Below, piece after piece: positions 16,612-37,493 of a stretch of DNA of 64,000 nt. The notes beneath the pieces are model-generated. The model did no database searches. It was not told where the DNA came from and saw nothing but the letters and a program-made list of their open reading frames with translations. The translations under genes and the position numbers were made by a program. Within the stretch, counting starts at the first letter, position 1; each line of letters starts with the position of its first letter. Source of the DNA: Protonemura montana (taxonomy: Eukaryota; Arthropoda; Insecta; Plecoptera; Nemouridae); the NCBI GenBank assembly GCA_947568835.1, contig OX387603.1, positions 7,685,943-7,749,942 of the forward strand, written 5' to 3'.

Positions 16612-16848
16612 ACAAGAAAATAACAAGAAAATAACAAGATTATAACAAGATTATAACAAGATTATAACAAGATTATAACAAGATTATAACAAGATTATAA
16701 CAAGATTATAACAAGATTATAACAAGATTATAACAAGATTATAACAAGATTAAAACAAGATTAAAACAAGATTATAACAAGATTATAACAAGATTATAAC
16801 AAGATTATAACAAGATTATAACAAGATTATAACAAGATTATAACAAGG
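16612..16848 (+). repeat. 11-bp minisatellite (ATTATAACAAG), also at 23603-23839
   Basis: About 21 units of ATTATAACAAG with two ATTAAAACAAG variants at the same place in both duplicate copies. Identical length in both copies indicates a very young duplication. Confidence 0.95.
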
Positions 16849-16889
16849 TAATCTTGTTGTAATCAAGGTAATCCAGTAAATGACTCGGA

Positions 16890-17130
16890 GCTTTACGGAG
16901 GTTTGATTTGTATTTATGTCACTACCTCAGGTCGATGGAACTGTCAACAAGAGCATCGACGTAATCTCCCCGCCACATCAACACATAGCGTGAAGTCACC
17001 TGCTGGCTCCTAGTTATGTGACATCACGGTCGTTGCATTGGTACCACTCAACTTTAGTATGTAGGTAACACTTCAAATACAATTGTAGGCTGGATTTGTT
17101 GGAAATTGGAATAAAACAAGTCTTTGCAGG
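16890..17130 (+). repeat. Dispersed repeat, also at 23881-24121 and inverted at 45055-45290
   Basis: Shares CACTACCTCAGGTCGATGGA, GTGAAGTCACCTGCTGGCTC and CAATTGTAGGCTGGATTTGT with the reverse complement of 45055-45290. The third copy is diverged, so this is an older interspersed family inside the duplicated block. Confidence 0.8.
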
Positions 17131-17186
17131 AGTATTTTTGCTGCTGCAAACATCTGTCAAGTGCAACGCTCTTCAGACCAGTTACA

Positions 17187-17583
17187 TCATGTCCATTTTC
17201 TCTGTCTTTTGGATGAGCCTACAAAGTAAACTCTTCCTATGTTCAATAAATAATAATTCTCGATGCAATTAATGGACTGATATTTAGTGATAATGCTTTT
17301 TTGTTGCAGCAAACCCAGCCTAAGGATGGCTTCTAGCAGTACCAACAAGGAAGTCACATTGTTGGGAGCATTGTTAACAAAGAGAACTTCCAATTCACTT
17401 GCCATTGCGATTTTTTGAAAATGGTAGGTAGTGGGCCTGCTGGTCGGTGCTCGGGGAGGAATACCGACGTTTCACTAACTTCCTCAAGCGTTTCATCATC
17501 TCGCTCTCAATATTAGATTCAATAGTTCCTGCCATTCTTAAATCATCAATTTGCATATTAAACAACCATTTGTACAACAACAA
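17187..17583 (-). other. Short minus-strand ORFs of unknown meaning
   Basis: Two open stretches (72 and 62 codons) follow one another; the second includes RMAGTIESNIESEMMKRL and looks helical and charged. A pyrimidine/AG context is weak. Both are repeated identically at 24178-24574 because of the duplication. I do not recognise them. Confidence 0.2.
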
Positions 17584-17719
17584 TTCATAATTACAATGTG
17601 TTCATTTCATAACCATAATCATAAATAATATTTATAACAAATTGTCAGCAGTAAGTGATTAGTAAGCTAGACCTTAATGGTCAACCATAATGTTTAAAGT
17701 CGGAAACGCAGAATTCTGC

Positions 17720-18010
17720 GTGCAAGATCTTTCAAGAATCGCAACACAAAAAAATTATTTCAAGAACTTGCTAAGAACTTGCCAAGATATCGTTTCCTTG
17801 CCAAGATTCCAAAAATCTTGCAGCCATGTAAGATCCCACGGGACCGTGTCAAGATCTTGTCAATTTCTTAATCTTGAGATCTTGAACAAATCTTGTCTGA
17901 AGGGAAAAATCTTAGATGTTTTCAAGAAATTGCCAAGAAATTGGCAAGATCTTGCTTCTTGCCAAGATCTTGCCAAGATCTTGCAAGATCTTGCAAGATC
18001 TTGCTAAGCA
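17720..18010 (+). repeat. CAAGATCTTG-rich palindromic repeat, also at 24711-25001
   Basis: The self-complementary word CAAGATCTTG and variants (TTGCCAAGATCTTGCC) recur irregularly and become contiguous at 17930-18010. It abuts the truncated 3' end of the LINE relic. Confidence 0.8.
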
Positions 18011-20303
18011 TTTTCAGCAGGCTAGTTTCATTACTACCTCTCAACCTGTGATCATGTCTTTCCACTTGTATTGCTACTTCTTTGTTATTAGTTGCATACA
18101 TGATAATATTGTATAGGTACAGACTAGGCAGAGGTAGGATGTTGAACTTTTCAAATAGCGGTCTGCACGAGTCCTTATAGAACGTTCCTGGTGTGGTTGG
18201 GTCATAACTCACCCTAGCCAGGCTCTTAACAGCTCGTTTTTGAAGTATGAACAGTTTAGATACTGACTGTGAGTGGCCCCACAGGACAATGCCATAGCTA
18301 AGTCTTGAGTGGACATAGGCAAAGTAGACAGACTTAGCCGAGTCAAAGTCACATGTTTTTGTGATTCTCTGAACGAGAAAGCATCCTGAAGAAACTAACA
18401 GGGCAGTTTAGTTGATATGCGTGTCCCATTTGAGTTAACTGTCAATATAGAGGCCAAGGAATTTAATTTCGTTTTTTACTTGGATACTTTTCCCCTCTAG
18501 GTATAGTAAGGGGATTATTGCATCGCCGTGGCCCTCAGACAATTTAGCATTTTGATTAAAATTAATTAGCACAGTTCTTTTTCCGTTCAGTCTCAACCCA
18601 TTTTCCACACTCCAGTTGGCCATTTGAGATATGGCTACTTTACATACGGAGTTGATGGACTCAGGATTTTCACCGATCAAATGGGTGGTGTCATCCGCGT
18701 ACGTCGTAAAGCTTCCAATACGTATCGTCTTTGTAAGATCATTAGTGAAGAGAATGAAGAGTATGGGGGAGATGGTTTCTCCTTGAGGAACTCCTGTTAC
18801 TATGTTCACTTCCTTTGAGTGATATGTGCCCAGTTGATCTGTTAATTTTACAGATTGCGTGCGATTACAAAGGAATGACTTAATCCACTCATTTGCAGTC
18901 CCGCGAATACCATAGTGTTTAAGTTTTTCCACGAGCAACTTATGGGATACATTTTCGAAAGCTTTCGTATAGTCATAGAACAGTCCATATGCAGCTTTCT
19001 TTTCTTTCTTAGATGATAAAAGACGGTCCACAAAGTCCGCAACAGCTGTTGTAGTTGATCTTTCTTTCCTGAAACCGTGTTGACAGTTGTCAAGGTAGTC
19101 AAACTTATCGAGGTAATTTAGCAATCGATTACAGTATGCGTTTTCAAAAAGTTTTGAAAAGACGGATAGATTGGATATTGGTCTGTAATTTCCTACATCT
19201 CTTTTATCCCCACTTTTGGGGATAGGTGTTACTATCGGTTTTTTAAGTGCTTCTGGAAAGGTCCCATTCTCGAATGATAGGTTTATTAGGAAAATTAATG
19301 GCATCATTAGGTGAACAGATGCGTGACGTAGTACATTGGCCGGGACTCCGTCATGTCCTGCAGATTTTTTTTTTATGATTTTGATCATGATATCATAATA
19401 CTCCTTCCCATCGATAGGCTTCAAAAAGATGGAGTTAGCCGGTTCGGAAAAAGTTGGGCCAGGGGTTAGCCCTTGTGTAACTTTTATGCCCGAGTCTGTA
19501 ATGACTGTATTTTTAAAATGATCATTAAAGATATCTGCTATCTCACTTCCTGAATCAATTAAACAGCCATTATGATTTAAATTAATTGGAGTTGACGATG
19601 AACATTTTTTGAATTTGTTAATAATATTCCACGCTGCTTTGCCTTTGTTGGTCGCTGTCTTAATGCAATTTATGTTGGCCTGTTTTACTTCACGTCGAAT
19701 TTCGAGGTGATAAAGCTTTTTAAGATCTTTGTACTTAACATTGTCGTGCTCACTCATGGTCGCTCTGTACCTTTGGTACAGTTGCTTTACTTTATGTGAC
19801 AGGGCGGTTAGTTCCAGGCTCAACCGATGTTTCTTCGCAGGATTTTCTTTAATTAGATGGGTCTGCATTGGGAAGGTTTTTCCAAAACACAGCAAGAATA
19901 ATTTATGAAAGTAATTAAATGCCTTGTTCAAGTCTGTGAATGAGTATAGTTTATCCCAGTTAATTTCACTTAGCATTAATTGGAATGCATCGATTTGTTT
20001 TTGCCCAAATATGCGCCTAGTAGAATACTTTTTTTTCCTGCCAGGGTTTTTGGTGGTACCTGGGTCTGCATGTGTCTCGATATAAACTAATTGGGCCATA
20101 TGGTCTGAGAGACCAATGTCAATATTAGCTGTAAGATTTACATTTTTACAGTTTGTGATGACATTGTCAATTGAGGAGGAAGTGACATGCTGTTGTGTTA
20201 CTGCAATTCTCGTGGGCTCATGATTAAGCATGTCATTTGTTTTCGACAGTACAATCCAGTCGATACTTTGATAAACAAAAAGTGGACCCGGCGGGAATCG
20301 CAC
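18008..20303 (-). pseudogene. Non-LTR retrotransposon ORF2 (reverse transcriptase), truncated at both ends, copy A
   Basis: The minus-strand frame encodes the end of an APE-type endonuclease (SSSIDNVITN, then GLSDHMAQL with the SDH motif) and a full reverse-transcriptase domain. RT motifs in order: TPIPKSGDKRDVGNYRPISN, HGFRKERSTTTA, FYDYTKAFENVSH, GVPQGETISPILF and the catalytic box TYADDTTHL. After the 622-codon ORF the same frame continues past two stops (18435-18437 and 18408-18410) into a C-terminal region with YGIVLWGHSQ and LQKRAVKSLAR, ending in the CAAGATC repeat. It resembles CR1/Jockey-group elements. Most of the endonuclease is missing; the first codons of the ORF come from the adjacent tRNA-like M0 sequence. 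The stops make it inactive. Confidence 0.9.
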
Positions 20304-20375
20304 TCGAGACCTCTTTAACCGTAGTTTCAGTCGAGATGCGACTTTTCCAATCAGCCGTGCTCACCGCTCCCTTGA
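20276..20375 (-). repeat. tRNA-like module M0 (also at 27267-27366)
   Basis: On the minus strand: A-box-like TGAGCACGGCTGATTGG, a long variable region, B-box-like GTGCGATTCCC, then CACTTTTTG, a Pol III-type terminator. Beyond the T-run comes GACTGGATTGTACTGTCG, a tail word shared with other modules at 36.7 and 37.1 kb. It is fused directly to the 5' side of the LINE relic. Confidence 0.65.
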
Positions 20376-20942
20376 ACTAATAACTAATACTTGAATGGCA
20401 GAGTATAACTTTTGTTCTGACCTGTGATTACCACATAAAGAACGAAACGAAGATTTTATAAACTGTTACTTGTTTTATTTACAAATTTTGCTACTTTGGT
20501 GCATTTGCATTTTTAAAATATATTGCCATTTCACTAGTGGATACTTAGCTCGCAAAATCTGAAACGTCATCTCACAGGCACGTCTCAGGGATACAAAAAC
20601 TGTTTAACTGTGAAAACTCCGTCAAAAAAATCTGAAAAAAATCTAACACACTACCTCCATAATTTTCAATAAAAATATTTCGACAATACTATATATACAT
20701 CAGCTGCAGCATTGCCCATCATCGTACAAAATAAAAAATACCTTCGAAGTCTTGTTCAATTAACTTATCCTGGATCTTTCGCCATTTAAAACATGCACAA
20801 GTACAGAAGGAAGCTAATGCCACCGATCTGTTTATTGCTTAGCAACCAAGGAAGTTATTCAAGTCAATAATTCCTACATTTCAAATATGTATTAGCAACA
20901 AAGTCGCTTACAGGATCACGGTTGGTAATTTTTTCCAAAACC

Positions 20943-21025
20943 AAAAAATGTCCTGCACAGGGATGCGAACCTAGACCCTTGGCATTTAGAGGCGAAGACT
21001 CTATCAACTTGGCGACCAAGCGAAT
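20943..21025 (-). repeat. tRNA-like module M1
   Basis: Minus strand: TGGTCGCCAAGTTGATAGAG (A-box region), then GGGTTCGCATCCC (B box, close to GGTTCGANTCC), then ACATTTTTTGG, a T-run. Other copies start at 22576, 27934, 29567, 31200 and 32833. The acceptor ends do not pair well, so it is tRNA-derived rather than a usable tRNA. Confidence 0.7.
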
Positions 21026-21683
21026 AATATGATCCGATATTTTGTGCCTATAAATTATACGTGACAATGTCAGCCTGCGACAGCCGACCAAGTAGTCACC
21101 TGTTACCGACCCAATACTAAATGATCAAGTTTGTTCGATACCCAACAGATAGCGCTAACATCAAAAAGGCACACTCTAGTGCTGGTTCGGTGATACTTGG
21201 TACATGTCTAGGGGGTCGAGTGCGAGTATAGGTTACTGGTCCTGCACCAGTCGGCCTCCATCGTCTTGCTGATCCACGTCGGATCTTGGCAAGTGATGGA
21301 AGCTATTTTTCTTGAAGTGGCAGAAAAGCTGCTCCCACTCCTCGCTGGAGGCTGGGTCCAGTCTGGACGGACTTTTCACACTCTTGCACTCAGTGCAATG
21401 ATTGGTGAAAATGTCAGGTGCATCTGACGTCATATGTCAAGTAATTGTGACGTATTCTTTGGAGCCAAAGCAGCATCATCTCAAGAAGACGCCGCGAGCG
21501 ATACGCCGACGTCATCACCAGCTGTACTCAAATCCACAATCGAAATTAAATTTTCAAATGGCGTCGCGACGTCGATGATGGCGCCACCTGTGAGCCAGGC
21601 TGGAACTAACCAGGACTGGAAAAATTATTTGAAAATGAAAAATCGTAAAAAGACAAAAATGAATATGGCCGACAAAAGTATAA

Positions 21684-21768
21684 ACAAAAAGTAAACCACG
21701 ACGAGGATCGAACTCGGTACCTTCTGCACATCAGGCATTCACTCTAACCGCTCGACCACTCGAGCCGC
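21684..21768 (-). repeat. tRNA-like module M2
   Basis: Minus strand: A box TGGTCGAGCGG fits the eukaryotic consensus; B box AGTTCGATCCT; T stem CGAG/CTCG pairs; then GTTTACTTTTTG supplies a T5 run. The A box resembles Ser/Leu tRNAs. Other copies start at 28675, 30308, 31941 and 33574 (the last with B-box change to AGTTCCATCCT). Confidence 0.75.
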
Positions 21769-22015
21769 TATATAGATTAGATGTTATTTGGAAGTAATAA
21801 GCTGTTGAACTGTGACGACGACCGCAAAGAATTCGAACAAATTGTCAGCCACTGCATCGATGAATTTTAATCAAAATATTTTTCGAATGCATCAGTAGAC
21901 TTCATCAAATATGGATGCCCATGATCGGAAATATTTTCCAAGTCTTGTTCAGTTTATTCATCCTGGATATTTCGCCATGGATGAACAAACTGCCATTCAA
22001 CACAACCATGCGTCC

Positions 22016-22085
22016 AAATAATGGACGGGACTCGAACTGGCGGCATTGGCCAACTCATTTGAGTCTCGGCCTTTGACCCGTGATA
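22016..22085 (-). repeat. tRNA-like module M3
   Basis: Minus strand: B box AGTTCGAGTCCCG is clear; the A box is poor; only TTT follows the 3' end, so a terminator is not convincing. Copies start at 29007, 30640, 32273 and 33906. Confidence 0.6.
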
Positions 22086-22324
22086 CGAATCTTGCCGCTG
22101 ACGTCAGCCGCGAAGCACATCACTGCACTTCACTTCACAGACTTCGGCTGCATGGAGGGAAACGCCCACACCAAACCTCATTTGAAAAATGATTCTTATC
22201 TGTATAGTTTCACCGAACGCGCAGTCGAGTTAAGAGACCCAGCGCAACCTGTCGGCCGAAACTGGCACTCACAGCAACTTAGTGCGACGACTTGCCACCA
22301 GAGCGACTCGAGTTTGGCGTAGCC

Positions 22325-22398
22325 AAAAAGCTTCCCGTCCGGGTATCGAACGCAATCCACTTATTTGAAAGGCAAGCACGCCTACCGAAGCGCTATGA
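22325..22398 (-). repeat. tRNA-like module M4
   Basis: Minus strand: A box TAGCGCTTCGGTAGGCG, an anticodon-loop-like CTTTCAA (would read TTC, Glu), B box GTTCGATACCC, then GCTTTTTGG, a T5 run. Copies start at 29316, 30949, 32582 and 34215. This is one of the best-preserved modules. Confidence 0.7.
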
Positions 22399-23223
22399 CG
22401 AACTATAAAGACATTCTTTTAAAACATGCACAAGTACAGAAGGAGGCTAACGCCACCGATCTGTTTATTGCTTAACAACCAAGGAAGTTATTCAAGTCAA
22501 TAATTCCTACATTTCAAATATGTATTAGCAACAAAGTCGCTTACAGGATCACGGTTGGTAATTTTTTCCAAAACCAAAAAATGTCCTGCACAGGGATGCG
22601 AACCCAGACCCTTGGCATTTAGAGGCAAAGACTCTATCAACTTGGCGACCAAGCGAATAATATGATCCGATATTTTGTGCCTATAAATTATACGTGACAA
22701 TGTCAGCCTGCGACAGCCGACCAAGTAGTCACCTGTTACCGACCCAATACTAAATGATCAAGTTTGTTCGATACCCAACAGATAGCGCTAACATCAAAAT
22801 GGCACACTCTAGTGCTGGTTCGGTGATACTTGGTACATGTCTAGGGGGTCGAGTGCGAGTATACGTTACTGGTCCTGCACCAGTCGGCCTCCATCGTCTT
22901 GCTGATCCACGTCGGATCTTGGCAAGTGATGGAAGCTCTTTTTCTTGGAGTGGCTGAAAGCTGCTCCCACTCCTCGCTGGAGGCTGGGTCCAGTCTTGGA
23001 CGGACTTTTCACACTCTTGCACTCAGTGCAATGATTGGTGAAAATGTCAGGTGCATCTGACGTCATATGTCAAGTAATTGTGACGTATTCTTTGGAGCCA
23101 AAGCAGCATCATCTCAAGAAGACGCCGCGAGCGATACGCCGACGTCATCACCAGCTGTACTCAAATCCGCAATCGAAATTAAATTTTTAAAAGGCGTCGC
23201 GACGTCGATGATGGCGCCACCTG

Positions 23224-23517
23224 TGGAAATCCTCTCCAGCTATTTGACCGTTGCAGTCGAAGAAGTCGCTCAGGTGCATCTCGGCAACGTCATCAGAGTC
23301 TCCTGAAATGTTCAACTCTGTCCTCATATCTGAGAACAAGACAAGATGTCAACTGATTGTAGACTACGGTAATGTTTACCAACATCTTCAGTGTTCATCT
23401 CATCCAGTTGGAAAGAATGTATCGAAAACACACAGATGTGTAAATATTAGTGATGCACGTGATAAATAAAATCCTGAATAGCAATTATTTCCAGCTTTTC
23501 TTTGGATAACCATTGGT

Positions 23518-23553
<36 letters not shown>

Positions 23554-26500
23554 TGATATCTCAAAAATAAAAACACAACAAATGAAATCTTAAGGAAGGA
23601 GAACAAGAAAATAACAAGAAAATAACAAGATTATAACAAGATTATAACAAGATTATAACAAGATTATAACAAGATTATAACAAGATTATAACAAGATTAT
23701 AACAAGATTATAACAAGATTATAACAAGATTATAACAAGATTAAAACAAGATTAAAACAAGATTATAACAAGATTATAACAAGATTATAACAAGATTATA
23801 ACAAGATTATAACAAGATTATAACAAGATTATAACAAGGTAATCTTGTTGTAATCAAGGTAATCCAGTAAATGACTCGGAGCTTTACGGAGGTTTGATTT
23901 GTATTTATGTCACTACCTCAGGTCGATGGAACTGTCAACAAGAGCATCGACGTAATCTCCCCGCCACATCAACACATAGCGTGAAGTCACCTGCTGGCTC
24001 CTAGTTATGTGACATCACGGTCGTTGCATTGGTACCACTCAACTTTAGTATGTAGGTAACACTTCAAATACAATTGTAGGCTGGATTTGTTGGAAATTGG
24101 AATAAAACAAGTCTTTGCAGGAGTATTTTTGCTGCTGCAAACATCTGTCAAGTGCAACGCTCTTCAGACCAGTTACATCATGTCCATTTTCTCTGTCTTT
24201 TGGATGAGCCTACAAAGTAAACTCTTCCTATGTTCAATAAATAATAATTCTCGATGCAATTAATGGACTGATATTTAGTGATAATGCTTTTTTGTTGCAG
24301 CAAACCCAGCCTAAGGATGGCTTCTAGCAGTACCAACAAGGAAGTCACATTGTTGGGAGCATTGTTAACAAAGAGAACTTCCAATTCACTTGCCATTGCG
24401 ATTTTTTGAAAATGGTAGGTAGTGGGCCTGCTGGTCGGTGCTCGGGGAGGAATACCGACGTTTCACTAACTTCCTCAAGCGTTTCATCATCTCGCTCTCA
24501 ATATTAGATTCAATAGTTCCTGCCATTCTTAAATCATCAATTTGCATATTAAACAACCATTTGTACAACAACAATTCATAATTACAATGTGTTCATTTCA
24601 TAACCATAATCATAAATAATATTTATAACAAATTGTCAGCAGTAAGTGATTAGTAAGCTAGACCTTAATGGTCAACCATAATGTTTAAAGTCGGAAACGC
24701 AGAATTCTGCGTGCAAGATCTTTCAAGAATCGCAACACAAAAAAATTATTTCAAGAACTTGCTAAGAACTTGCCAAGATATCGTTTCCTTGCCAAGATTC
24801 CAAAAATCTTGCAGCCATGTAAGATCCCACGGGACCGTGTCAAGATCTTGTCAATTTCTTAATCTTGAGATCTTGAACAAATCTTGTCTGAAGGGAAAAA
24901 TCTTAGATGTTTTCAAGAAATTGCCAAGAAATTGGCAAGATCTTGCTTCTTGCCAAGATCTTGCCAAGATCTTGCAAGATCTTGCAAGATCTTGCTAAGC
25001 ATTTTCAGCAGGCTAGTTTCATTACTACCTCTCAACCTGTGATCATGTCTTTCCACTTGTATTGCTACTTCTTTGTTATTAGTTGCATACATGATAATAT
25101 TGTATAGGTACAGACTAGGCAGAGGTAGGATGTTGAACTTTTCAAATAGCGGTCTGCACGAGTCCTTATAGAACGTTCCTGGTGTGGTTGGGTCATAACT
25201 CACCCTAGCCAGGCTCTTAACAGCTCGTTTTTGAAGTATGAACAGTTTAGATACTGACTGTGAGTGGCCCCACAGGACAATGCCATAGCTAAGTCTTGAG
25301 TGGACATAGGCAAAGTAGACAGACTTAGCCGAGTCAAAGTCACATGTTTTTGTGATTCTCTGAACGAGAAAGCATCCTGAAGAAACTAACAGGGCAGTTT
25401 AGTTGATATGCGTGTCCCATTTGAGTTAACTGTCAATATAGAGGCCAAGGAATTTAATTTCGTTTTTTACTTGGATACTTTTCCCCTCTAGGTATAGTAA
25501 GGGGATTATTGCATCGCCGTGGCCCTCAGACAATTTAGCATTTTGATTAAAATTAATTAGCACAGTTCTTTTTCCGTTCAGTCTCAACCCATTTTCCACA
25601 CTCCAGTTGGCCATTTGAGATATGGCTACTTTACATACGGAGTTGATGGACTCAGGATTTTCACCGATCAAATGGGTGGTGTCATCCGCGTACGTCGTAA
25701 AGCTTCCAATACGTATCGTCTTTGTAAGATCATTAGTGAAGAGAATGAAGAGTATGGGGGAGATGGTTTCTCCTTGAGGAACTCCTGTTACTATGTTCAC
25801 TTCCTTTGAGTGATATGTGCCCAGTTGATCTGTTAATTTTACAGATTGCGTGCGATTACAAAGGAATGACTTAATCCACTCATTTGCAGTCCCGCGAATA
25901 CCATAGTGTTTAAGTTTTTCCACGAGCAACTTATGGGATACATTTTCGAAAGCTTTCGTATAGTCATAGAACAGTCCATATGCAGCTTTCTTTTCTTTCT
26001 TAGATGATAAAAGACGGTCCACAAAGTCCGCAACAGCTGTTGTAGTTGATCTTTCTTTCCTGAAACCGTGTTGACAGTTGTCAAGGTAGTCAAACTTATC
26101 GAGGTAATTTAGCAATCGATTACAGTATGCGTTTTCAAAAAGTTTTGAAAAGACGGATAGATTGGATATTGGTCTGTAATTTCCTACATCTCTTTTATCC
26201 CCACTTTTGGGGATAGGTGTTACTATCGGTTTTTTAAGTGCTTCTGGAAAGGTCCCATTCTCGAATGATAGGTTTATTAGGAAAATTAATGGCATCATTA
26301 GGTGAACAGATGCGTGACGTAGTACATTGGCCGGGACTCCGTCATGTCCTGCAGATTTTTTTTTTATGATTTTGATCATGATATCATAATACTCCTTCCC
26401 ATCGATAGGCTTCAAAAAGATGGAGTTAGCCGGTTCGGAAAAAGTTGGGCCAGGGGTTAGCCCTTGTGTAACTTTTATGCCCGAGTCTGTAATGACTGTA

Positions 26501-29500
26501 TTTTTAAAATGATCATTAAAGATATCTGCTATCTCACTTCCTGAATCAATTAAACAGCCATTATGATTTAAATTAATTGGAGTTGACGATGAACATTTTT
26601 TGAATTTGTTAATAATATTCCACGCTGCTTTGCCTTTGTTGGTCGCTGTCTTAATGCAATTTATGTTGGCCTGTTTTACTTCACGTCGAATTTCGAGGTG
26701 ATAAAGCTTTTTAAGATCTTTGTACTTAACATTGTCGTGCTCACTCATGGTCGCTCTGTACCTTTGGTACAGTTGCTTTACTTTATGTGACAGGGCGGTT
26801 AGTTCCAGGCTCAACCGATGTTTCTTCGCAGGATTTTCTTTAATTAGATGGGTCTGCATTGGGAAGGTTTTTCCAAAACACAGCAAGAATAATTTATGAA
26901 AGTAATTAAATGCCTTGTTCAAGTCTGTGAATGAGTATAGTTTATCCCAGTTAATTTCACTTAGCATTAATTGGAATGCATCGATTTGTTTTTGCCCAAA
27001 TATGCGCCTAGTAGAATACTTTTTTTTCCTGCCAGGGTTTTTGGTGGTACCTGGGTCTGCATGTGTCTCGATATAAACTAATTGGGCCATATGGTCTGAG
27101 AGACCAATGTCAATATTAGCTGTAAGATTTACATTTTTACAGTTTGTGATGACATTGTCAATTGAGGAGGAAGTGACATGCTGTTGTGTTACTGCAATTC
27201 TCGTGGGCTCATGATTAAGCATGTCATTTGTTTTCGACAGTACAATCCAGTCGATACTTTGATAAACAAAAAGTGGACCCGGCGGGAATCGCACTCGAGA
27301 CCTCTTTAACCGTAGTTTCAGTCGAGATGCGACTTTTCCAATCAGCCGTGCTCACCGCTCCCTTGAACTAATAACTAATACTTGAATGGCAGAGTATAAC
27401 TTTTGTTCTGACCTGTGATTACCACATAAAGAACGAAACGAAGATTTTATAAACTGTTACTTGTTTTATTTACAAATTTTGCTACTTTGGTGCATTTGCA
27501 TTTTTAAAATATATTGCCATTTCACTAGTGGATACTTAGCTCGCAAAATCTGAAACGTCATCTCACAGGCACGTCTCAGGGATACAAAAACTGTTTAACT
27601 GTGAAAACTCCGTCAAAAAAATCTGAAAAAAATCTAACACACTACCTCCATAATTTTCAATAAAAATATTTCGACAATACTATATATACATCAGCTGCAG
27701 CATTGCCCATCATCGTACAAAATAAAAAATACCTTCGAAGTCTTGTTCAATTAACTTATCCTGGATCTTTCGCCATTTAAAACATGCACAAGTACAGAAG
27801 GAAGCTAATGCCACCGATCTGTTTATTGCTTAGCAACCAAGGAAGTTATTCAAGTCAATAATTCCTACATTTCAAATATGTATTAGCAACAAAGTCGCTT
27901 ACAGGATCACGGTTGGTAATTTTTTCCAAAACCAAAAAATGTCCTGCACAGGGATGCGAACCTAGACCCTTGGCATTTAGAGGCGAAGACTCTATCAACT
28001 TGGCGACCAAGCGAATAATATGATCCTATATTTTGTGCCTATTAATTATACGTGACAATGTCAGCCTGCGACAGCCGACCAAGTAGTCACCTGTTACCGA
28101 CCCAATACTAAATGATCAAGTTTGTTCGATACCCAACAGATAGCGCTAACATCAAAAAGGCACACTCTAGTGCTGGTTCGGTGATACTTGGTACATGTCT
28201 AGGGGGTCGAGTGCGAGTATAGGTTACTGGTCCTGAACCAGTCGGCCTCCATCGTCTTGCTGATCCACGTCGGATCTTGGCAAGTGATGGAAGCTCTTTT
28301 TCTTGGAGTGGCTGAAAGCTGCTCCCACTCCTCGCTGGAGGCTGGGTCCAGTCTTGGACGGACTTTTCACACTCTTGCACTCAGTGCAATGATTGGTGAA
28401 AATGTCAGGTGCATCTGACGTCACATGTCAAGTAATTGTGACGTATTGTTTGGGGCCAAAGCAGCCTCATCTCAAGAAGACGCCGCGAGCGACACGCCGA
28501 CGTCATCACCAGCTGTACTCAAATCCGCAATCGAAATTAAATTTTTAAAAGGCGTCGCGACGTCGATGATGGCGCCACCTGTGAGCCAGGCTGGAACTAA
28601 CCAGGACTGGAAAAATTATTTGAAAATGAAAAATCGTAAAAAGACAAAAATGAATATGGCCGACAAAAGTATAAACAAAAAGTAAACCACGACGAGGATC
28701 GAACTCGGTACCTTCTGCACATCAGGCCTTCACTCTAACCGCTCGACCACTCGAGCCGCTATATAGATTAGATGTTATTTGGAAGTAATAAGCTGTTGAA
28801 CTGTGACGACGACCGCAAAGAATTCGAACAAATTGTCAGCCACTGCATCGATGAATTTTAATCAAAATATTTTTCGAATGCATCAGTAGACTTCATCAAA
28901 TATGGATGCCCATGATCGGAAATATTTTCCAAGTCTTGTTCAGTTTATTCATCCTGGATATTTCGCCATGGATGAACAAACTGCCATTCAACACAACCAT
29001 GCGTCCAAATAATGGACGGGACTCGAACTGGCGGCATTGGCCAACTCATTTGAGTCTCGGCCTTTGACCCGTGATACGAATCTTGCCGCTGACGTCAGCC
29101 GCGAAGCACATCACTGCACTTCACTTCACAGACTTCGGCTGCATGGAGGGAAACGCCCACACCAAACCTCATTTGAAAAATGATTCTTATCTGTATAGTT
29201 TCACCGAACGCGCAGTCGAGTTAAGAGACCCAGCGCAACCTGTCGGCCGAAACTGGCACTCACAGCAACTTAGTGCGACGACTTGCCACCAGAGCGACTC
29301 GAGTTTGGCGTAGCCAAAAAGCTTCCCGTCCGGGTATCGAACGCAAACCACTTATTTGAAAGGCAAGCACGCCTACCGAAGCGCTATGACGAACTATAAA
29401 GACATTCTTTTAAAACATGCACAAGTACAGAAGGAGGCTAACGCCACCGATCTGTTTATTGCTTAACAACCAAGGAAGTTATTCAAGTCAATAATTCCTA

Positions 29501-30214
29501 CATTTCAAATATGTATTAGCAACAAAGTCGCTTACAGGATCACGGTTGGTAATTTTTTCCAAAACCAAAAAATGTCCTGCACAGGGATGCGAACCCAGAC
29601 CCTTGGCATTTAGAGGCAAAGACTCTATCAACTTGGCGACCAAGCGAATAATATGATCCGATATTTTGTGCCTATAAATTATACGTGACAATGTCAGCCT
29701 GCGACAGCCGACCAAGTAGTCACCTGTTACCGACCCAATACTAAATGATCAAGTTTGTTCGATACCCAACAGATAGCGCTAACATCAAAAAGGCACACTC
29801 TAGTGCTGGTTCGGTGATACTTGGTACATGTCTAGGGGGTCGAGTGCGAGTATACGTTACTGGTCCTGCACCAGTCGGCCTCCATCGTCTTGCTGATCCA
29901 CGTCGGATCTTGGCAAGTGATGGAAGCTCTTTTTCTTGGAGTGGCTGAAAGCTGCTCCCACTCCTCGCTGGAGGCTGGGTCCAGTCTTGGACGGACTTTT
30001 CACACTCTTGCACTCAGTGCAATGATTGGTGAAAATGTCAGGTGCATCTGACGTCACATGTCAAGTAATTGTGACGTATTGTTTGGGGCCAAAGCAGCCT
30101 CATCTCAAGAAGACGCCGCGAGCGATACGCCGACGTCATCACCAGCTGTACTCAAATCCGCAATCGAAATTAAATTTTTAAAAGGCGTCGCGACGTCGAT
30201 GATGGCGCCACCTG
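23224..30214. repeat. 6,991-bp tandem segmental duplication, copy B
   Basis: Copy B of 16233-23223. In the non-unit part I see no difference from copy A in the passages compared, including the whole LINE ORF. In the 1,633-bp-unit part there are several substitutions and two compensating 1-bp indels (around 21305-21365 versus 28296-28356). Confidence 0.9.
24999..27294 (-). pseudogene. Non-LTR retrotransposon ORF2, copy B
   Basis: The 622-codon reading frame is identical to that at 18435-20303, with the same internal stops downstream and the same fusion to the tRNA-like M0 module. It is present only because the whole block was duplicated, not by a second retrotransposition: flanks, microsatellites and truncation points are all shared. 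Confidence 0.9.
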
Positions 30215-33200
30215 TGAGCCAGGCTGGAACTAACCAGGACTGGAAAAATTATTTGAAAATGAAAAATCGTAAAAAGACAAAAATGAATATGGCCGACAAA
30301 AGTATAAACAAAAAGTAAACCACGACGAGGATCGAACTCGGTACCTTCTGCACATCAGGCATTCACTCTAACCGCTCGACCACTCGAGCCGCTATATAGA
30401 TTAGATGTTATTTGGAAGTAATAAGCTGTTGAACTGTGACGACGACCGCAAAGAATTCGAACAAATTGTCAGCCACTGCATCGATGAATTTTAATCAAAA
30501 TATTTTTCGAATGCATCAGTAGACTTCATCAAATATGGATGCCCATGATCGGAAATATTTTCCAAGTCTTGTTCAGTTTATTCATCCTGGATATTTCGCC
30601 ATGGATGAACAAACTGCCATTCAACACAACCATGCGTCCAAATAATGGACGGGACTCGAACTGGCGGCATTGGCCAACTCATTTGAGTCTCGGCCTTTGA
30701 CCCGTGATACGAATCTTGCCGCTGACGTCAGCCGCGAAGCACATCACTGCACTTCACTTCACAGACTTCGGCTGCATGGAGGGAAACGCCCACACCAAAC
30801 CTCATTTGAAAAATGATTCTTATCTGTATAGTTTCACCGAACGCGCAGTCGAGTTAAGAGACCCAGCGCAACCTGTCGGCCGAAACTGGCACTCACAGCA
30901 ACTTAGTGCGACGACTTGCCACCAGAGCGACTCGAGTTTGGCGTAGCCAAAAAGCTTCCCGTCCGGGTATCGAACGCAAACCACTTATTTGAAAGGCAAG
31001 CACGCCTACCGAAGCGCTATGACGAACTATAAAGACATTCTTTTAAAACATGCACAAGTACAGAAGGAGGCTAACGCCACCGATCTGTTTATTGCTTAAC
31101 AACCAAGGAAGTTATTCAAGTCAATAATTCCTACATTTCAAATATGTATTAGCAACAAAGTCGCTTACAGGATCACGGTTGGTAATTTTTTCCAAAACCA
31201 AAAAATGTCCTGCACAGGGATGCGAACCCAGACCCTTGGCATTTAGAGGCAAAGACTCTGTCAACTTGGCGACCAAGCGAATAATATGATCCGATATTTT
31301 GTGCCTATAAATTATACGTGACAATGTCAGCCTGCGACAGCCGACCAAGTAGTCACCTGTTACCGACCCAATACTAAATGATCAAGTTTGTTCGATACCC
31401 AACAGATAGCGCTAACATCAAAAAGGCACACTCTAGTGCTGGTTCGGTGATACTTGGTACATGTCTAGGGGGTCGAGTGCGAGTATACGTTACTGGTCCT
31501 GCACCAGTCGGCCTCCATCGTCTTGCTGATCCACGTCGGATCTTGGCAAGTGATGGAAGCTCTTTTTCTTGGAGTGGCTGAAAGCTGCTCCCACTCCTCG
31601 CTGGAGGCTGGGTCCAGCCTTGGACGGACTTTTCACACTCTTGCACTCAGTGCAATGATTGGTGAAAATGTCAGGTGCATCTGACGTCACATGTCAAGTA
31701 ATTGTGACGTATTGTTTGGGGCCAAAGCAGCCTCATCTCAAGAAGACGCCGCGAGCGATACGCCGACGTCATCACCAGCTGTACTCAAATCCGCAATCGA
31801 AATTAAATTTTTAAAAGGCGTCGCGACGTCGATGATGGCGCCACCTGTGAGCCAGGCTGGAACTAACCAGGACTGGAAAAATTATTTGAAAATGAAAAAT
31901 CGTAAAAAGACAAAAATGAATATGGCCGACAAAAGTATAAACAAAAAGTAAACCACGACGAGGATCGAACTCGGTACCTTCTGCACATCAGGCATTCACT
32001 CTAACCGCTCGACCACTCAAGCCGCTATATAGATTAGATGTTATTTGGAAGTAATAAGCTGTTGAACTGTGACGACGACCGCAAAGAATTCGAACAAATT
32101 GTCAGCCACTGCATCGATGAATTTTAATCAAAATATTTTTCGAATGCATCAGTAGACTTCATCAAATATGGATGCCCATGATCGGAAATATTTTCCAAGT
32201 CTTGTTCAGTTTATTCATCCTGGATATTTCGCCATGGATGAACAAACTGCCATTCAACACAACCATGCGTCCAAATAATGGACGGGACTCGAACTGGCGG
32301 CATTGGCCAACTCATTTGAGTCTCGGCCTTTGACCCGTGATACGAATCTTGCCGCTGACGTCAGCCGCGAAGCACATCACTGCACTTCACTTCACAGACT
32401 TCGGCTGCATGGAGGGAAACGCCCACACCAAACCTCATTTGAAAAATGATTCTTATCTGTATAGTTTCACCGAACGCGCAGTCGAGTTAAGAGACCCAGC
32501 GCAACCTGTCGGCCGAAACTGGCACTCACAGCAACTTAGTGCGACGACTTGCCACCAGAGCGACTCGAGTTTGGCGTAGCCAAAAAGCTTCCCGTCCGGG
32601 TATCGAACGCAAACCACTTATTTGAAAGGCAAGCACGCCTACCGAAGCGCTATGACGAACTATAAAGACATTCTTTTAAAACATGCACAAGTACAGAAGG
32701 AGGCTAACGCCACCGATCTGTTTATTGCTTAACAACCAAGGAAGTTATTCAAGTCAATAATTCCTACATTTCAAATATGTATTAGCAACAAAGTCGCTTA
32801 CAGGATCACGGTTGGTAATTTTTTCCAAAACCAAAAAATGTCCTGCACAGGGATGCGAACCCAGACCCTTGGCATCTAGAGGCAAAGACTCTATCAACTT
32901 GGCGACCAAGCGAATAATATGATCCGATATTTTGTGCCTATAAATTATACGTGACAATGTCAGCCTGCGACAGCCGACCAAGTAGTCACCTGTTACCGAC
33001 CCAATACTAAATGATCAAGTTTGTTCGATACCCAACAGATAGCGCTAACATCAAAAAGGCACACTCTAGTGCTGGTTCGGTGATACTTGGTACATGTCTA
33101 GGGGGTCGAGTGCGAGTATACGTTACTGGTCCTGAACCAGTCGGCCTCCATCGTCTTGCTGATCCACGTCGGATCTTGGCAAGTGATGGAAGCTCTTTTT

Positions 33201-34446
33201 CTTGGAGTGGCTGAAAGCTGCTCCCACTCCTCGCTGGAGGCTGGGTCCAGTCTTGGACGGACTTTTCACACTCTTGCACTCAGTGCAATGATTGGTGAAA
33301 ATGTCAGGTGCATCTGACGTCACATGTCAAGTAATTGTGACGTATTGTTTGGGGCCAAAGCAGCCTCATCTCAAGAAGACGCCGCGAGCGACACGCCGAC
33401 GTCATCACCAGCTGTACTCAAATCCGCAATCGAAATTAAATTTTTAAAAGGCGTCGCGACGTCGATGATGGCGCCACCTGTGAGCCAGGCTGGAACTAAC
33501 CAGGACTGGAAAAATTATTTGAAAATGAAAAATCGTAAAAAGACAAAAATGAATATGGCCGACAAAAGTATAAACAAAAAGTAAACCACGACGAGGATGG
33601 AACTCGGTACCTTCTGCACATCAGACATTCACTCTAACCGCTCGACCACTCGAGCCGCTATATAGAATAGATGTTATTTGGAATTAATAAGCTGTTGAAC
33701 TGTGACGACAGCCGCAAAGAATCCGAACAAATTGTCAGCCACTGCATCGATGAATTTTAATCAAAATATTTTTCGAATGTATCAGTAGACTTCATCAAAT
33801 ATGGATGCCCATGATCGGAAATATTTTCCAAGTCTTGTTCAGTTTATTCATCCTGGATATTTCGCCATGGATGAACAAACTGCCATTCAACACAACCATG
33901 CGTCCAAATAATGGACGGGACTCGAACTGGCGGCATTGGCCAACTCATTTGAGTCTCGGCCTTTGACCCGTGATACGAATCTTGCCGCTGACGTCAGCCG
34001 CGAAGCACATCACTGCACTTCACTTCACAGACTTCGGCTGCATGGAGGGAAACGCCCACACCAAACGTCATTTGAAAAATGATTCTTATCTGTATAGTTT
34101 CACCGAACGCGCAGTCGAGTTAAGAGACCCAGCGCAACCTGTCGGCCGAAACTGGCACTCACAGCAACTTAGTGCGACGATTTGCCACCAGAGCGACTCG
34201 AGTTTGGCGTAGCCAAAAAGCTTCCCGTCCGGGTATCGAACGCAAACCACTTATTTGAAAGGCAAGCACGCCTACCGAAGCGCTATGACGAACTATAAAG
34301 ACATTCTTTTAAAACATGCACAAGTACAGAAGGAGGCTAACGCCACCGATCTGTTTATTGCTTAACAACCAAGGAAGTTATACAAGTCAATAATTCCTAC
34401 ATTTCAAATATGTATTAGCAACAAAGTCGCTTACAGGATCACGGTT
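27775..34446 (-). repeat. 1,633-bp tandem repeat, second block (about four units)
   Basis: Units start at 27775, 29408, 31041 and 32674, with a 140-bp stub from 34307 that stops at CACGGTT (34446). Units differ by scattered substitutions; the fourth is the most divergent, as expected at an array edge. Holds 16 tRNA-like modules (four each of M1-M4), all minus. Confidence 0.92.
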
Positions 34447-34560
34447 CTGCCGGAAATCGCTTACGCACGCTGCCGCCTCGGCCCATCGGCGCGCCGGCGC
34501 GCCCGTGCACCTGAGCGCGCCTCGCGCGCGAAGCGCGCTTGGGCGCTACAAAATTGCGAA
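34447..34560. other. GC- and CpG-rich block at the array edge
   Basis: About 110 bp rich in GCGCGC words, including GGCGCGCCGGCGCGCC and GCGCGCGAAGCGCGC, both able to form hairpins. It contrasts sharply with its AT-rich surroundings and begins exactly where the 1,633-bp repeat stops. It could be the end of a DNA transposon or a breakpoint insertion. Confidence 0.5.
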
Positions 34561-34593
34561 ATTCCTCGGTTGCTGTCTTCGGTATGCGATCAA

Positions 34594-34704
34594 AAAAAAA
34601 TAAGAGGTGTGAAACTGCGGTAGTTGTGCGGACGGGATCCGAACCAGGGATTTTCAGGAGTTTTCACAAGAGGTAGTGCCTTGTACCGCACGACCACGCG
34701 GACA
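34594..34704 (-). repeat. tRNA-like module S1
   Basis: Minus strand: A box TGGTCGTGCGG (consensus-like), a long variable part, B box GGTTCGGATCCCG, and a T9 run some 25 nt further on. Outside the 1,633-bp units; first member of the diverged series. Confidence 0.7.
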
Positions 34705-34792
34705 TCTAGTTGCAAAGGCATTTTTATCGTTTATAAATTCTTCTGACTGCAGCTACCATGTGTGAATAATTTGAATGTCGTATTCCAATAGA

Positions 34793-34893
34793 AAAAATAT
34801 CCTGTCGGTGAGCGGTATCGAACCAGGTCGCAATGTAGCTTGATGATTCCGAAGTAACGACATGTCCATTGTGCTGCGTGGACGGCTCAGATA
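34793..34893 (-). repeat. tRNA-like module S2
   Basis: Minus strand: A-box-like GCAGCACAATGG, long variable part, B box GGTTCGATACC, then ATATTTTTTC. Confidence 0.65.
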
Positions 34894-35124
34894 TTGTGGT
34901 AAACAGAATATATTTTAATTTCATATCTGATGTCCCTGTGTACCAGGTTGACTACAGGCACACGTCACTGACGGCACTCCATGTATACTACGGTTTGGAG
35001 TCGCATTCTTCTTTGCGTTTCAGTGAACCATCTTTTAAGAAATTCAAGATATTATGACCGACTATTATCACTTACGCAGCGAGGACGAACTGGACCTGAC
35101 CCCCAGACTTAGAGTCCGACAGAC

Positions 35125-35205
35125 AAAATTGGGGGATGCCGGGAAGCGAACTGCGGACCCTATGCGATATATTACCCGACCATCCCACTGTGCTAGGACG
35201 TCATG
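35125..35205 (-). repeat. tRNA-like module S3
   Basis: Minus strand: A box TAGCACAGTGGGATGG (consensus match), B box AGTTCGCTTCCCG, then CAATTTTG, a minimal T4 terminator. Confidence 0.7.
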
Positions 35206-35285
35206 TTCTCTCCGGTCGATTTGTTATCAAACACGGGATGCAATCTGTCTCTCAGAACAAATTCCTGTTGCTACTTTCTGAATAA

Positions 35286-35375
35286 CAAAAAGCGAAGCGG
35301 ACTGGTGTCGAACACTGTTACGTCTGAAGATTCATGCATAGAAGCGACTTTCCCATTCACCCACCGTGACTTGTT
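35286..35375 (-). repeat. tRNA-like module S4
   Basis: Minus strand: degenerate A region (TCACGGTGGG), B box TGTTCGACACC, then CGCTTTTTGTTATTC. The GCTTTTTGTT end is shared with M0, S5, S10 and S12. Confidence 0.6.
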
Positions 35376-35425
35376 GGTACGACATGGGATTTAAGAGATA
35401 CTTGAATTGCAGGAGAGGGAACAAA

Positions 35426-35510
35426 AACGCGGACCGGTCAGGATTCGAATTCAGGCCTGTTGGAAGGCGCCTGCTGGTAAAGTAACATCTCCGTAATGCT
35501 ACTTGTGGAG
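35426..35510 (-). repeat. tRNA-like module S5
   Basis: Minus strand: A box TAGCATTACGGAG, B box AATTCGAATCC, then GCGTTTTTGTTCC. Confidence 0.65.
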
Positions 35511-35629
35511 TAACTACCCTGCACTTGAATAGCAGCTGGCGGGGATCATGGTACACCATCGAGAAGAGATGTAAGTTGTCTCTGTAAAGATTAATACGTA
35601 TCCAGCAGTTTCACACACATGTGACTTAC

Positions 35630-35712
35630 CTGCTTTAAACCAGCGACCCTCTGCATCCTGGCGCTGGGCACGAGAGCGATCTTCACTCGCCGCCAATCGG
35701 ACGCTACGAAGA
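35630..35712 (-). repeat. tRNA-like module S6
   Basis: Minus strand: A box TAGCGTCCGATTGG, variable part, and a decayed B box (GGTCGCTGGTTTAAAGC). Confidence 0.5.
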
Positions 35713-35782
35713 CCGGCGAGAGTTGCATGACAATACTTTAACAATCTTGGTAGGTGATTGATTCTTAGTTAAAAATAGTGTA

Positions 35783-35830
35783 CCAAGCGGGATACGAACT
35801 CGGCCCCGTTTCTCCTCCGATCCATTTTCT
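35783..35830 (-). repeat. tRNA-like module S7, B-box half only
   Basis: Minus strand: GAGTTCGTATCCCGC is a good B box; the A-box half is missing or unrecognisable. Confidence 0.45.
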
Positions 35831-36625
35831 TGTACCTTTTGCAGGAAGTAAATAAAACAATATGTAAATAAATCACATCTAGCAGTGAATCCTGATGGGT
35901 AGGCCCATCAGGAGCGCACATAAGCGCACACGTGTGCGCTTACGTCATGTTTATAGCCCAGGCGTTGGGAGTCGAGGAACTCGGGGAATTCTCAAAAGGA
36001 ATTCAAGAAAAACGTGGTAAGTTTCCATCGCAGGTTCAAACAGGGGGTTGCATTCAACTCTCCTTGAAATTCTACCCTGTTGACACCCCTCGCGGGTCAA
36101 AATCAGTCACTTGAATTTCCACTCAAAAAATATTGAAAAAATCAATGGATGGACCCCTTACGTTTTTACTTGATTTTTTAAGATTCGCCCATACTTTGGT
36201 CTAAGGGGCAAATAATGACAAAATTATCCATCTCGTAGGCTGAGAAAACTTGAAGAACTAGACTGGCAATATTCTAAATAATGTAGTACCGGAATTAGAA
36301 AGAATATTTGACATATTGAACAATTTCATCTAAAACGGAACTGGTGTAAAATAAGCACTTTGCTGGCAACATCTACGCAAGCAGAGCTACCAATTCCAAA
36401 AAAATTTCAAATAATCCACTGCGTTCAAAGAATAAACAATGCGTACACGAGGCCACGAAACTAGCACGTTACCATCGGGCTACGCTGCCCTGATAATTAA
36501 CGTGTGGCTTAGGTCGTATCTGAACCATCGATTTTGGACTTAGTAAAAAAAAAAATTGTATGTACTTCGAAATGTTTTCATCAGGAATATATTTCGGGTG
36601 GAGAACTGTTACTCAAAACACGTAG
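35831..36625. other. AT-rich spacer with one poor tRNA-like remnant
   Basis: Around 36440-36540 the minus strand has an A-box-like TAGCCCGATGG and, separately, GGTTCAGATACGACC, which may be parts of two broken modules. No gene is seen otherwise. Confidence 0.4.
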
Positions 36626-36697
36626 GCGCCGGGGATCGAACTGGGGTCTCTCCCCCCGGAGAATCCGACCATCACACTGAGCCACTTGGAGTTACAG
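36625..36697 (-). repeat. tRNA-like module S9 (Pro-like)
   Basis: Minus strand: TGGCTCAGTGTGATGG (A box), an anticodon arm TTCTC-CGGGGGG-GAGAG-like that would read GGG, and B box AGTTCGATCCC with a pairing T stem (CCC-CAG...). This is the closest to a canonical tRNA fold in the array, but the acceptor arms (CTCCAAG / GCGCCTA) do not pair. Confidence 0.65.
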
Positions 36698-36767
36698 TTC
36701 CTTCCTAATTAATTATCAAACAGGTGATGTCATTTGTCTCTTATAATTTAATGCAGTCGCCGCTCGT

Positions 36768-36852
36768 TGAGGAACAAAAAGCGGATCGGGCGGGAGTCGA
36801 ACCTCATCATGTTGAATACTGATGTGGTGAACTACCCAACTAGCCTTGGTGA
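36768..36852 (-). repeat. tRNA-like module S10
   Basis: Minus strand: A-box-like GGCTAGTTGGGTAG, B box GGTTCGACTCCCG, then CCGCTTTTTGTTCC and a tail GCGGCGACTGCATT related to that of S12 and M0. Confidence 0.7.
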
Positions 36853-37035
36853 CGATATGATGAGATGAAGAATTATTAGACTCTTAACATATCAACGAGG
36901 AGCTCAGGGGCTGTTGCTAGAGGTGACTTGTTGGTACAGATAAGAAAAGCGTAATTACACAGACAATTTATTTACAATCAAGACATGTGAGCATCGTACT
37001 CACCCAACACGCTGTGCGAATGTAGGTCCAATCCT

Positions 37036-37105
37036 TGCATGCGACGAGGATCGAACTGCGGACCTCACCGATTGTACAGCCACATGGATCCATGCATTGA
37101 GGGAT
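37036..37105 (-). repeat. tRNA-like module S11
   Basis: Minus strand: A box TGGCTGTACAATCGG, short variable part, B box AGTTCGATCCTCGTCG. No long T-run follows. Confidence 0.6.
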
Positions 37106-37159
37106 ATCCAAACAATCACGTGATGTCATCTGTCTTCAACAATACAATCCAGTCGCCAC

Positions 37160-37262
37160 TCCGAAAAACAAAAAGCACCATGGGACGGGAATTGAACCTG
37201 AGCAACAATAATCACACACTGTTGACAGAGATACGACTTATCCAACATGCCGTGCTCATGTC
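37160..37262 (-). repeat. tRNA-like module S12
   Basis: Minus strand: TGAGCACGGCATGTTGG (A box, like M0), B box GGTTCAATTCCCG, GTGCTTTTTGTTTTTCGG, then tail AGTGGCGACTGGATTGTA as in M0 and S10. Its 5' side has ATACTTGAATGGCAGAGTAT (plus strand), also seen beside M0. Confidence 0.7.
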
Positions 37263-37493
37263 AAATATATCCTGCGAAAATAACAAATACTTGAATGGCA
37301 GAGTATGGCCTATTTTTTTTATTTTTTTATTATTTTTTTTTATTATATCCAGATTGAACATACATGTTATTGGATTGTCAGGATTGGATTGTGATCCCAA
37401 TTAATATATATAATAATAATACTACCCTACGAGGTAGTACTATAACTACTATACTACTACTACTACTATAATACTACAATATAATGCTACTAA
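37263..37493. repeat. Simple-sequence region
   Basis: T-rich runs (37313-37342) followed by irregular TAC/TAA trinucleotide repeats (37410-37495). Confidence 0.8.

What the first reader, a model, noticed from the sequence alone, without database searches (positions are those of the whole stretch)
20276..37262. One-directional 17-kb array of about 35 tRNA-like Pol III modules
Two M0 copies, 21 copies of M1-M4 and about twelve diverged S modules all lie on the minus strand. Most keep a B box (GTTCGANTCC-like), many an A box, and most have a T4-T9 run just after the 3' end. The heads differ in sequence, so several tRNA-like ancestors are involved. Random SINE insertion would give both orientations; tandem growth explains M1-M4 but not the diverged S series with the same orientation. 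This may be a cluster of old tRNA-derived genes grown in place, a tRNA-headed satellite, or a source locus for SINE heads.
Basis: partly seen in the sequence, partly recalled or inferred. Interest (0 to 1): 0.82.

Follow-up and report, generated by a model that had tools for sequence, protein, structure and literature searches.

The report
Tandem tRNA-like Pol III promoter arrays
This stretch of an animal genome is one of many scattered tandem arrays whose 1.6-kb repeat unit carries three short tRNA-like elements that look like RNA polymerase III promoters with terminators but are not recognised as tRNA genes; whether they are transcribed or useful is unknown.

Summary
A 1633-bp unit repeats on the minus strand (about 1.5 + 4.1 copies). 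A profile built only from other loci finds 16 modules (M1 x6, M2 x5, M4 x5) at E<=4.5e-14, M0 x2 and three S places weakly, all minus. M3 fails: no terminator, no profile hit. Rfam (E<=10) and ARAGORN find no tRNA in the array. The array is not unique: at least 23 clusters with this unit lie on six contigs, in both orientations; a 1.16-kb relative spreads over 66 kb; another family has modules on both strands. Between arrays, the 20 nt just upstream of M1 and M2 are the most variable windows of the unit, M4's less so, M3's not at all. Within 7 arrays these flanks vary 5.3 times more than non-module sequence, but the window's own units and two later test arrays show no significant excess. Best reading: dispersed tandem clusters of tRNA-derived Pol III transcription units that are not tRNAs. 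Transcription and function are inferred, not shown.

The parts
20785..23225 (-). short tandem stretch of the 1633-bp unit (about 1.5 units)
27776..34446 (-). main tandem stretch of the 1633-bp unit (about 4.1 units)
   Evidence: G000:C2:7713718-7720388
20940..21020 (-). M1 module; further copies 22573-22653, 27931-28011, 29564-29644, 31197-31277, 32830-32910
   Evidence: R1 hits, 6 copies, E 1.2e-16 to 3.3e-15; T6 run
22323..22400 (-). M2 module; further copies 29314-29391, 30947-31024, 32580-32657, 34213-34290
   Evidence: R1 hits, 5 copies, E about 4e-14; T5 run
21683..21765 (-). M4 module; further copies 28674-28756, 30307-30389, 31940-32021, 33573-33655
   Evidence: R1 hits, 5 copies, E 5e-19 to 3e-16; T5 run
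22013..22078 (-). M3 (B-box-like only; judged not a transcription unit); further copies 29004-29069, 30637-30702, 32270-32335, 33903-33968
   Evidence: no R1 hit; no T4 run near the B box; 5' flank not variable; coordinates
20274..20350 (-). M0, diverged module next to a LINE fragment
   Evidence: partial R1 hit 20274-20320, E 1.3e-4; upstream end by eye
27265..27341 (-). M0, second copy (by the 6991-bp duplication)
   Evidence: partial R1 hit 27265-27311; duplication
34574..37325 (-). S region: diverged modules, with homologous stretches at other loci (34574-34924 to the two-strand array family; 35117-35230; 35230-35416; 35419-36208; 36456-36719; 36738-36880; 37126-37325)
   Evidence: blastn; R1 hits 36616-36678, 37040-37071, 37167-37201 at E 0.004-0.07
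16233..30216 (.). 6991-bp tandem duplication (16233-23225 / 23224-30216) that doubled M0, the LINE fragment and about 1.5 units
   Evidence: 99.67% identity

Best explanation
The array is one of many dispersed tandem clusters of tRNA-derived RNA polymerase III transcription units that are not tRNA genes. Each 1.6-kb unit holds three type-2 (internal A box + B box) units, M1, M2 and M4, each followed by a T run 12-14 nt after the B box in this window, so that TFIIIC, TFIIIB and Pol III would make RNAs of about 75-95 nt. Arrays are homogenised, presumably by unequal crossing over and gene conversion, and spread, at least in part, by copying of blocks. The promoter boxes change less than the stretches beside and (mostly) between them, so recruitment of the Pol III machinery, as a selfish satellite or as a TFIIIC-bound chromatin element, is a likelier target of retention than a particular RNA. 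Shown: arrays, dispersal, homogeneity within arrays, no recognisable tRNA, uneven divergence. Inferred: transcription, mode of spread, role.
For: 16 of 16 M1/M2/M4 window copies found by a profile made without the window. 322 genomic matches to the M4 A-box core against 1 for the reversed control; 103 against 0 for a B-box-plus-terminator pattern, with the same distance to the T run in 99 of the 100 places listed, although 4-14 nt were allowed. Full copies 98-99% identical within the window, 79-95% between loci over matches longer than 1 kb. Between 15 arrays, mismatch in the 20 nt upstream is 0.588 (M2), 0.507 (M1) and 0.295 (M4) but 0.039 for M3, which also lacks a terminator; spacers 0.089-0.196. 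Within 7 arrays, 35 of 417 flank sites vary against 142 of 9032 outside modules and flanks; 2 of 1633 circular shifts, the true one included, reach this; dropping any one array leaves a ratio of 4.4-5.9; AT-matched windows do not explain M1 or M4. I recall that real tRNA genes are hypermutable beside the gene (Thornlow 2018; only its title in a reference list was seen, and the paper is not held). The 1.16-kb relatives match M1, M2 and M4 but show no match to unit 445-620 and 1003-1267, so those spacers can be lost.
Against: No expression data. No tRNA match. Modules fold no better than shuffled sequence (mean z -0.15 to -0.36; the one tRNA-like control scored -0.23, so the test is weak). The flank excess is absent in the window's own 4 units (0 of 60) and not significant in two arrays tested afterwards: C11:2.24 Mb, 17 units, ratio 1.11, 411 of 1163 shifts as high (M1's flank alone 0.053 against 0.030 overall); C5:11.08 Mb, 4 units, ratio 1.8, 426 of 1640. 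M2's flank within arrays is only weakly raised (0.036; 60 of 445 AT-matched windows as high). The boxes are not more conserved than spacers: A boxes 0.061 (M4), 0.145 (M1), 0.291 (M2), B boxes 0.059 (M2), 0.148 (M4), 0.210 (M1), against spacers 0.089-0.196. So low flank conservation could partly reflect constraint on the rest. Transition share does not differ between flanks and rest (0.46 and 0.46).
Confidence: 0.5

Rival explanations
1. Ordinary satellite-like repeat: tRNA-derived pieces caught in a unit that then amplified and was copied around; promoter boxes are relics and nothing is transcribed.
For: No tRNA recognised; arrays vary in length and locus; fold z near 0; boxes no more conserved than spacers; no significant flank excess in the window's units or in two test arrays.
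Against: Uneven divergence inside the unit with peaks just upstream of M1 and M2, a smaller one at M4 and none at M3; same B-box-to-T-run distance over many loci, though shared descent could give this too.
Confidence: 0.33
2. Functional small non-coding RNA gene family (as with vault or 4.5S RNAs): the RNA itself is selected. (A sub-case of transcription.)
For: Two short stems of M2 covary (90.7% of cells paired, covariation score 0.384 against 0.174 in shuffles, 0 of 500 reach it; slid versions 38.6-47.6% paired). M1, M2 and M4 are kept while spacer blocks are lost.
Against: The M2 stems were taken from the same alignment and rest on few lineages; pairs with a double change are no better than shuffles (363 of 500); by eye part of the second stem is broken in the 1.16-kb relatives, which were not in that alignment. 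M1 and M4: 0 of 2 and 0 of 9 predicted pairs have a compensatory change. The interbox stretches of M1 and M2 are more variable than the spacers.
Confidence: 0.15
3. Arrays are TFIIIC-bound boundary or looping elements; transcription is incidental. Unit 829-838 reads like the fly CTCF core and 1262-1276 resembles it (recalled motif, not tested).
For: Clustered B boxes; the spacer motif AGCGCTATCTGTTGG occurs 42 times against 0 for the control, 34 of the 42 in regularly spaced runs.
Against: No chromatin data; the CTCF likeness is from memory and by eye.
Confidence: 0.15

Closest known systems
tRNA gene arrays of Entamoeba (PMC2652664; start of abstract, found passages and the Function section seen)
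   Same: Many distinct tandem arrays whose units carry up to several Pol III-type genes each; array function obscure there too.
   Different: Those are almost all of the organism's tRNA genes; here the modules are not recognised as tRNAs and the 62 tRNA matches listed lie elsewhere (63 of 23590 candidates scored).
Arabidopsis SYY cluster of tandem tRNA-Ser/Tyr genes (PMC12308677; start of abstract and found passages seen)
   Same: Tandem multi-gene Pol III unit, silent in most tissues.
   Different: True tRNA genes in one cluster; here tRNA-like modules at tens of loci.
4.5SH / 4.5SI RNA genes of rodents (PMC10137851; only the start of its abstract in a listing; the tandem 4.5SH arrays are recalled)
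   Different: No sequence relation tested; here three different modules per unit.
tRNA-derived SINEs (recalled)
   Same: tRNA-like head with A and B boxes.
   Different: Here a T run follows the head at once; no body, tail or target-site duplication was seen at modules (by eye only).

Membership tests
tRNA gene (Rfam RF00005) | score at or above the family's gathering score, or an ARAGORN call | tested here: not met
   No tRNA match in window 10000-50000 or 27000-37300 at E<=10, in 14 loci from arrays at gathering or in 4 further ones at E<=5; ARAGORN 0 genes in 18 array loci and 8 B-box loci and in 4 further loci, and none inside the window array
tRNA gene (Rfam RF00005) | cloverleaf stems | tested here: inconclusive
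   72 of 75 modules scored. Mean pairs M4/M1/M2: acceptor 4.2/3.9/2.9 of 7 (shuffled about 3), D 3.6/2.9/3.5 of 4 (2.8), anticodon 3.5/3.8/3.8 of 5 (3.5-3.7), T 3.5/3.9/3.8 of 5 (2.2). Some arms exceed shuffles, but whole-letter shuffling also destroys the boxes; three tRNA-like controls scored 4-7, 3-4, 4-5 and 4
Pol III type-2 transcription unit | internal A box and B box plus a T4+ terminator | tested here: met
   By alignment for M1, M2, M4; not for M3; A boxes weak by my own matrix
Pol III type-2 transcription unit | Pol III occupancy and a discrete RNA | not testable with these tools
   no ChIP or RNA data at hand
tRNA-derived SINE | body and 3' tail after the head, target-site duplications, scattered single insertions | tested here: inconclusive
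   Not seen by eye; isolated copies were not fetched
Satellite / tandem repeat | head-to-tail homogenised copies | tested here: met
   full units of the window array 98-99% identical
Vault RNA (Rfam) | covariance-model match | tested here: not met
   no such match listed up to E=10 in the window stretches scanned

The most novel reading that the evidence does not exclude
A large, undescribed superfamily of tandem Pol III clusters, with tens of arrays in one animal genome, makes germline tRNA-like RNAs or anchors TFIIIC; selection keeps the promoters rather than a tRNA, and in active arrays the start sites are mutation hot spots caused by the transcription itself.
Probability: 0.22. Interest if true: 0.75.

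Novelty: new variant of a known kind. Interest (0 to 1): 0.5.

Why it matters
If transcribed, these arrays would be a multi-gene tandem Pol III cluster built from modules that are not tRNAs, and a natural test bed for transcription-linked mutation next to Pol III start sites, since a non-module (M3) inside the unit serves as a control. If silent, they show how tRNA-like promoters become part of a satellite.

Tried and rejected
Rejected: genuine tRNA genes. A protein in the conserved spacers was judged unlikely only from single-base gaps; no codon test was made. Conserved hairpins: several windows of the unit have low alifold z (for example 421-540, -7.2; 1081-1200, -5.6 and -7.0 on the two strands; 25 column shuffles each); the changes in the 1111-1170 hairpin are not compensatory by eye and the 1.16-kb relatives show no match there, so this was not followed. 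The alifold energies had no control and are not used. Transposon termini: array edges compared; no target-site duplication or common terminus found by eye, not searched systematically. Taxon: COX1 read with table 5 (AGA=Ser, ATA=Met, TGA=Trp) looks arthropod-like to me from memory; TTAGG-like repeats stand near one array; paper searches for the assembly gave nothing that fits. Literature searches for arrays of this kind; none listed a matching system, but the library lacks most subscription papers.

Dropped rows: two of 17 aligned units (one cut short, one diverged end unit, both from clusters already represented) were left out; could use only the 7 arrays with two or more full units; three of 75 modules could not be anchored; the alignments hold 25 of 37, 32 of 45, 25 of 39 and 18 of 21 copies listed, picked by hand to thin near-identical ones. 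Of four further arrays prepared only two (type-I, C11:2.24 Mb and C5:11.08 Mb) were put to the flank test; C16:21.22 Mb and C2:3.18 Mb were not. Flank borders used were fixed after seeing (between-array data). In mending this report I lowered the best explanation from 0.55 to 0.5 and raised the inert-satellite rival from 0.3 to 0.33, because on recount the boxes are not more conserved than the spacers.
Full report
WHAT IS THERE. The window is G000:C2:7685943-7749942 of a 258-Mb, 34-contig assembly. On its minus strand a 1633-bp unit repeats at 20785-23225 and 27776-34446, full copies 98-99% identical. A 6991-bp tandem duplication at 99.67% (16233-23225 / 23224-30216) doubled M0, a LINE fragment and about 1.5 units. 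A sequence profile of 21 modules from other loci (alignment, model R1) finds 21 places in the 64 kb at E<=10, all minus: M4 x5, M1 x6 and M2 x5 at E<=4.5e-14, M0 x2 at 1.3e-4, and three S places at 0.004-0.07. M3 is not found. B-box-like sites are enriched in the 17 kb (18 against a shuffled mean of 4.9, maximum 8; 17 of 18 minus); my stricter A-box + T-run criterion leaves only 1.

NOT RECOGNISED AS tRNA. Rfam lists no tRNA match up to E=10 in 10000-50000 or 27000-37300, none at gathering in 14 loci from arrays and none at E<=5 in 4 further ones; ARAGORN finds none in 22 array loci and 8 B-box loci. Some cloverleaf arms pair better than shuffled letters (T stem in all three modules, D stem in M2 and M4, acceptor mainly in M4), the anticodon stem does not: relics of a tRNA, not a tRNA. 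The 62 tRNA matches listed for the genome (63 of 23590 candidates were scored) lie outside the array coordinates I had seen (checked by eye).

DISPERSED. The 1633-bp unit occurs in 23 clusters, this one included, on C2, C3, C4, C5, C11 and C13, at 79-95% identity to this one over matches longer than 1 kb at other loci. By my count the main array is plus in 14 and minus in 9, and 12 of the 23 have an opposite-strand piece at an end; only 24 of 233 candidates were scored, so this is a lower bound. Pattern counts: M4 A-box core 322 against 1 reversed control; M1 A-box core 171 against 20; M2-like 3' end 103 against 0. At C11:2.19-2.26 Mb M1-core hits, mostly at about 1.16-kb spacing or multiples of it, spread over 66 kb; I read 22 kb of it, tandem throughout. 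Its units, read in a 4.5-kb piece, match M1, M2 and M4 but show no match to unit 445-620 and 1003-1267. A third kind (C1:31.14 Mb, 1754 bp; C2:3.18 Mb, about 1707 bp) has modules on both strands and shares short blocks with this unit; the S stretch 34574-34924 is related to it. The S region is shared in pieces with several loci, and four pieces of 37142-40164 match, in order, the left flank of the C11:15.897 Mb array: blocks were probably copied between loci.

HOW THE UNIT EVOLVES. Over 15 arrays (105 pairs) the most variable 20-nt windows of the unit are those just upstream of M2 and M1 (flank means 0.588, 0.507), then the M2 interbox stretch; M4's flank is 0.295. The median window is 0.117. 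M3's flank is 0.039. A and B boxes: M4 0.061 and 0.148, M1 0.145 and 0.210, M2 0.291 and 0.059; spacers 0.089-0.196. So boxes vary less than the flanks, but not less than spacers. One variable zone, unit 926-961, belongs to no module and is unexplained (all). Within arrays (7 arrays, 2-5 full units each) 35 of 417 flank sites vary (0.084) against 142 of 9032 (0.0157) outside modules and flanks; 2 of 1633 circular shifts, the true position included, are as high; M3's flank 0 of 140. M1 and M4 flanks exceed all AT-matched windows; M2's does not. Leaving out any array keeps the ratio at 4.4-5.9; the window's own array contributes 0 of 60. Two arrays tested afterwards do not repeat it: C11:2.24 Mb (17 units) 1.11-fold, 411 of 1163 shifts as high, with only M1's flank raised (0.053 against 0.030); C5:11.08 Mb (4 units) 1.8-fold, 426 of 1640. 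I read the pattern as a trace of Pol III initiation in some arrays, because it marks the three modules that have terminators and spares the one that has none; the two negative arrays keep this at the level of a suggestion.

RNA STRUCTURE. M1 and M4 show no compensatory pairs (0 of 2 and 0 of 9 predicted). M2 has two short non-cloverleaf stems that covary between subfamilies, with the caveats that the structure came from the same alignment and that the 1.16-kb relatives, not included, break part of one stem by eye. Module energies equal those of shuffles, a weak test since the tRNA-like control was also near zero.

MECHANISM. Most likely: type-2 Pol III promoters in tandem, homogenised within arrays and spread at least partly by block copying, with recruitment of the Pol III machinery rather than a tRNA product as the retained property. 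Arrays, dispersal and divergence pattern are shown; transcription, mode of spread and role are inferred. Rivals: inert satellite, functional RNA family, TFIIIC boundary element.

NOVELTY. Tandem multi-gene tRNA arrays are known in Entamoeba (PMC2652664) and Arabidopsis (PMC12308677); both consist of tRNA genes. I found no description of arrays of tRNA-like modules that are not tRNAs in searches, in an open-licence library only. Hence 'new variant of a known kind'.

Noticed in passing
8188-8308 (+), 13796-13916 (-), 54589-54709 (-): 5S rRNA-like sequences (40-54 bits); about 350 bp beside or overlapping them recur at other loci, which looks like a 5S-derived repeat.
   Followed up: partly
7042-7114, 7544-7615, 7703-7775, 61128-61203: Similar tRNA-like heads (ARAGORN names three of them Ser or Leu; all four are Rfam tRNA matches), probably SINE heads.
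   Followed up: no
18435-20360, 25426-27351, 37712-38281, 39192-39842: Non-LTR retrotransposon reverse-transcriptase fragments (judged by eye) inside or beside the array.
   Followed up: no
43103-44537: Harbinger-like transposase frames (by eye).
   Followed up: no
51054-52605: 45-bp minisatellite, 34.5 copies, open in several frames on both strands.
   Followed up: no
60442-60855: Frame that reads like 8-oxoguanine glycosylase (OGG1), by eye.
   Followed up: no
G000:C4:5760925-5762262 and C34:3504-4841: COX1 found twice with the same score: a recent nuclear copy of mitochondrial DNA or an assembly join.
   Followed up: no
unit 926-961 (window 28448-28483 in one copy): A zone as variable between arrays as M4's flank, with no module.
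   Followed up: no
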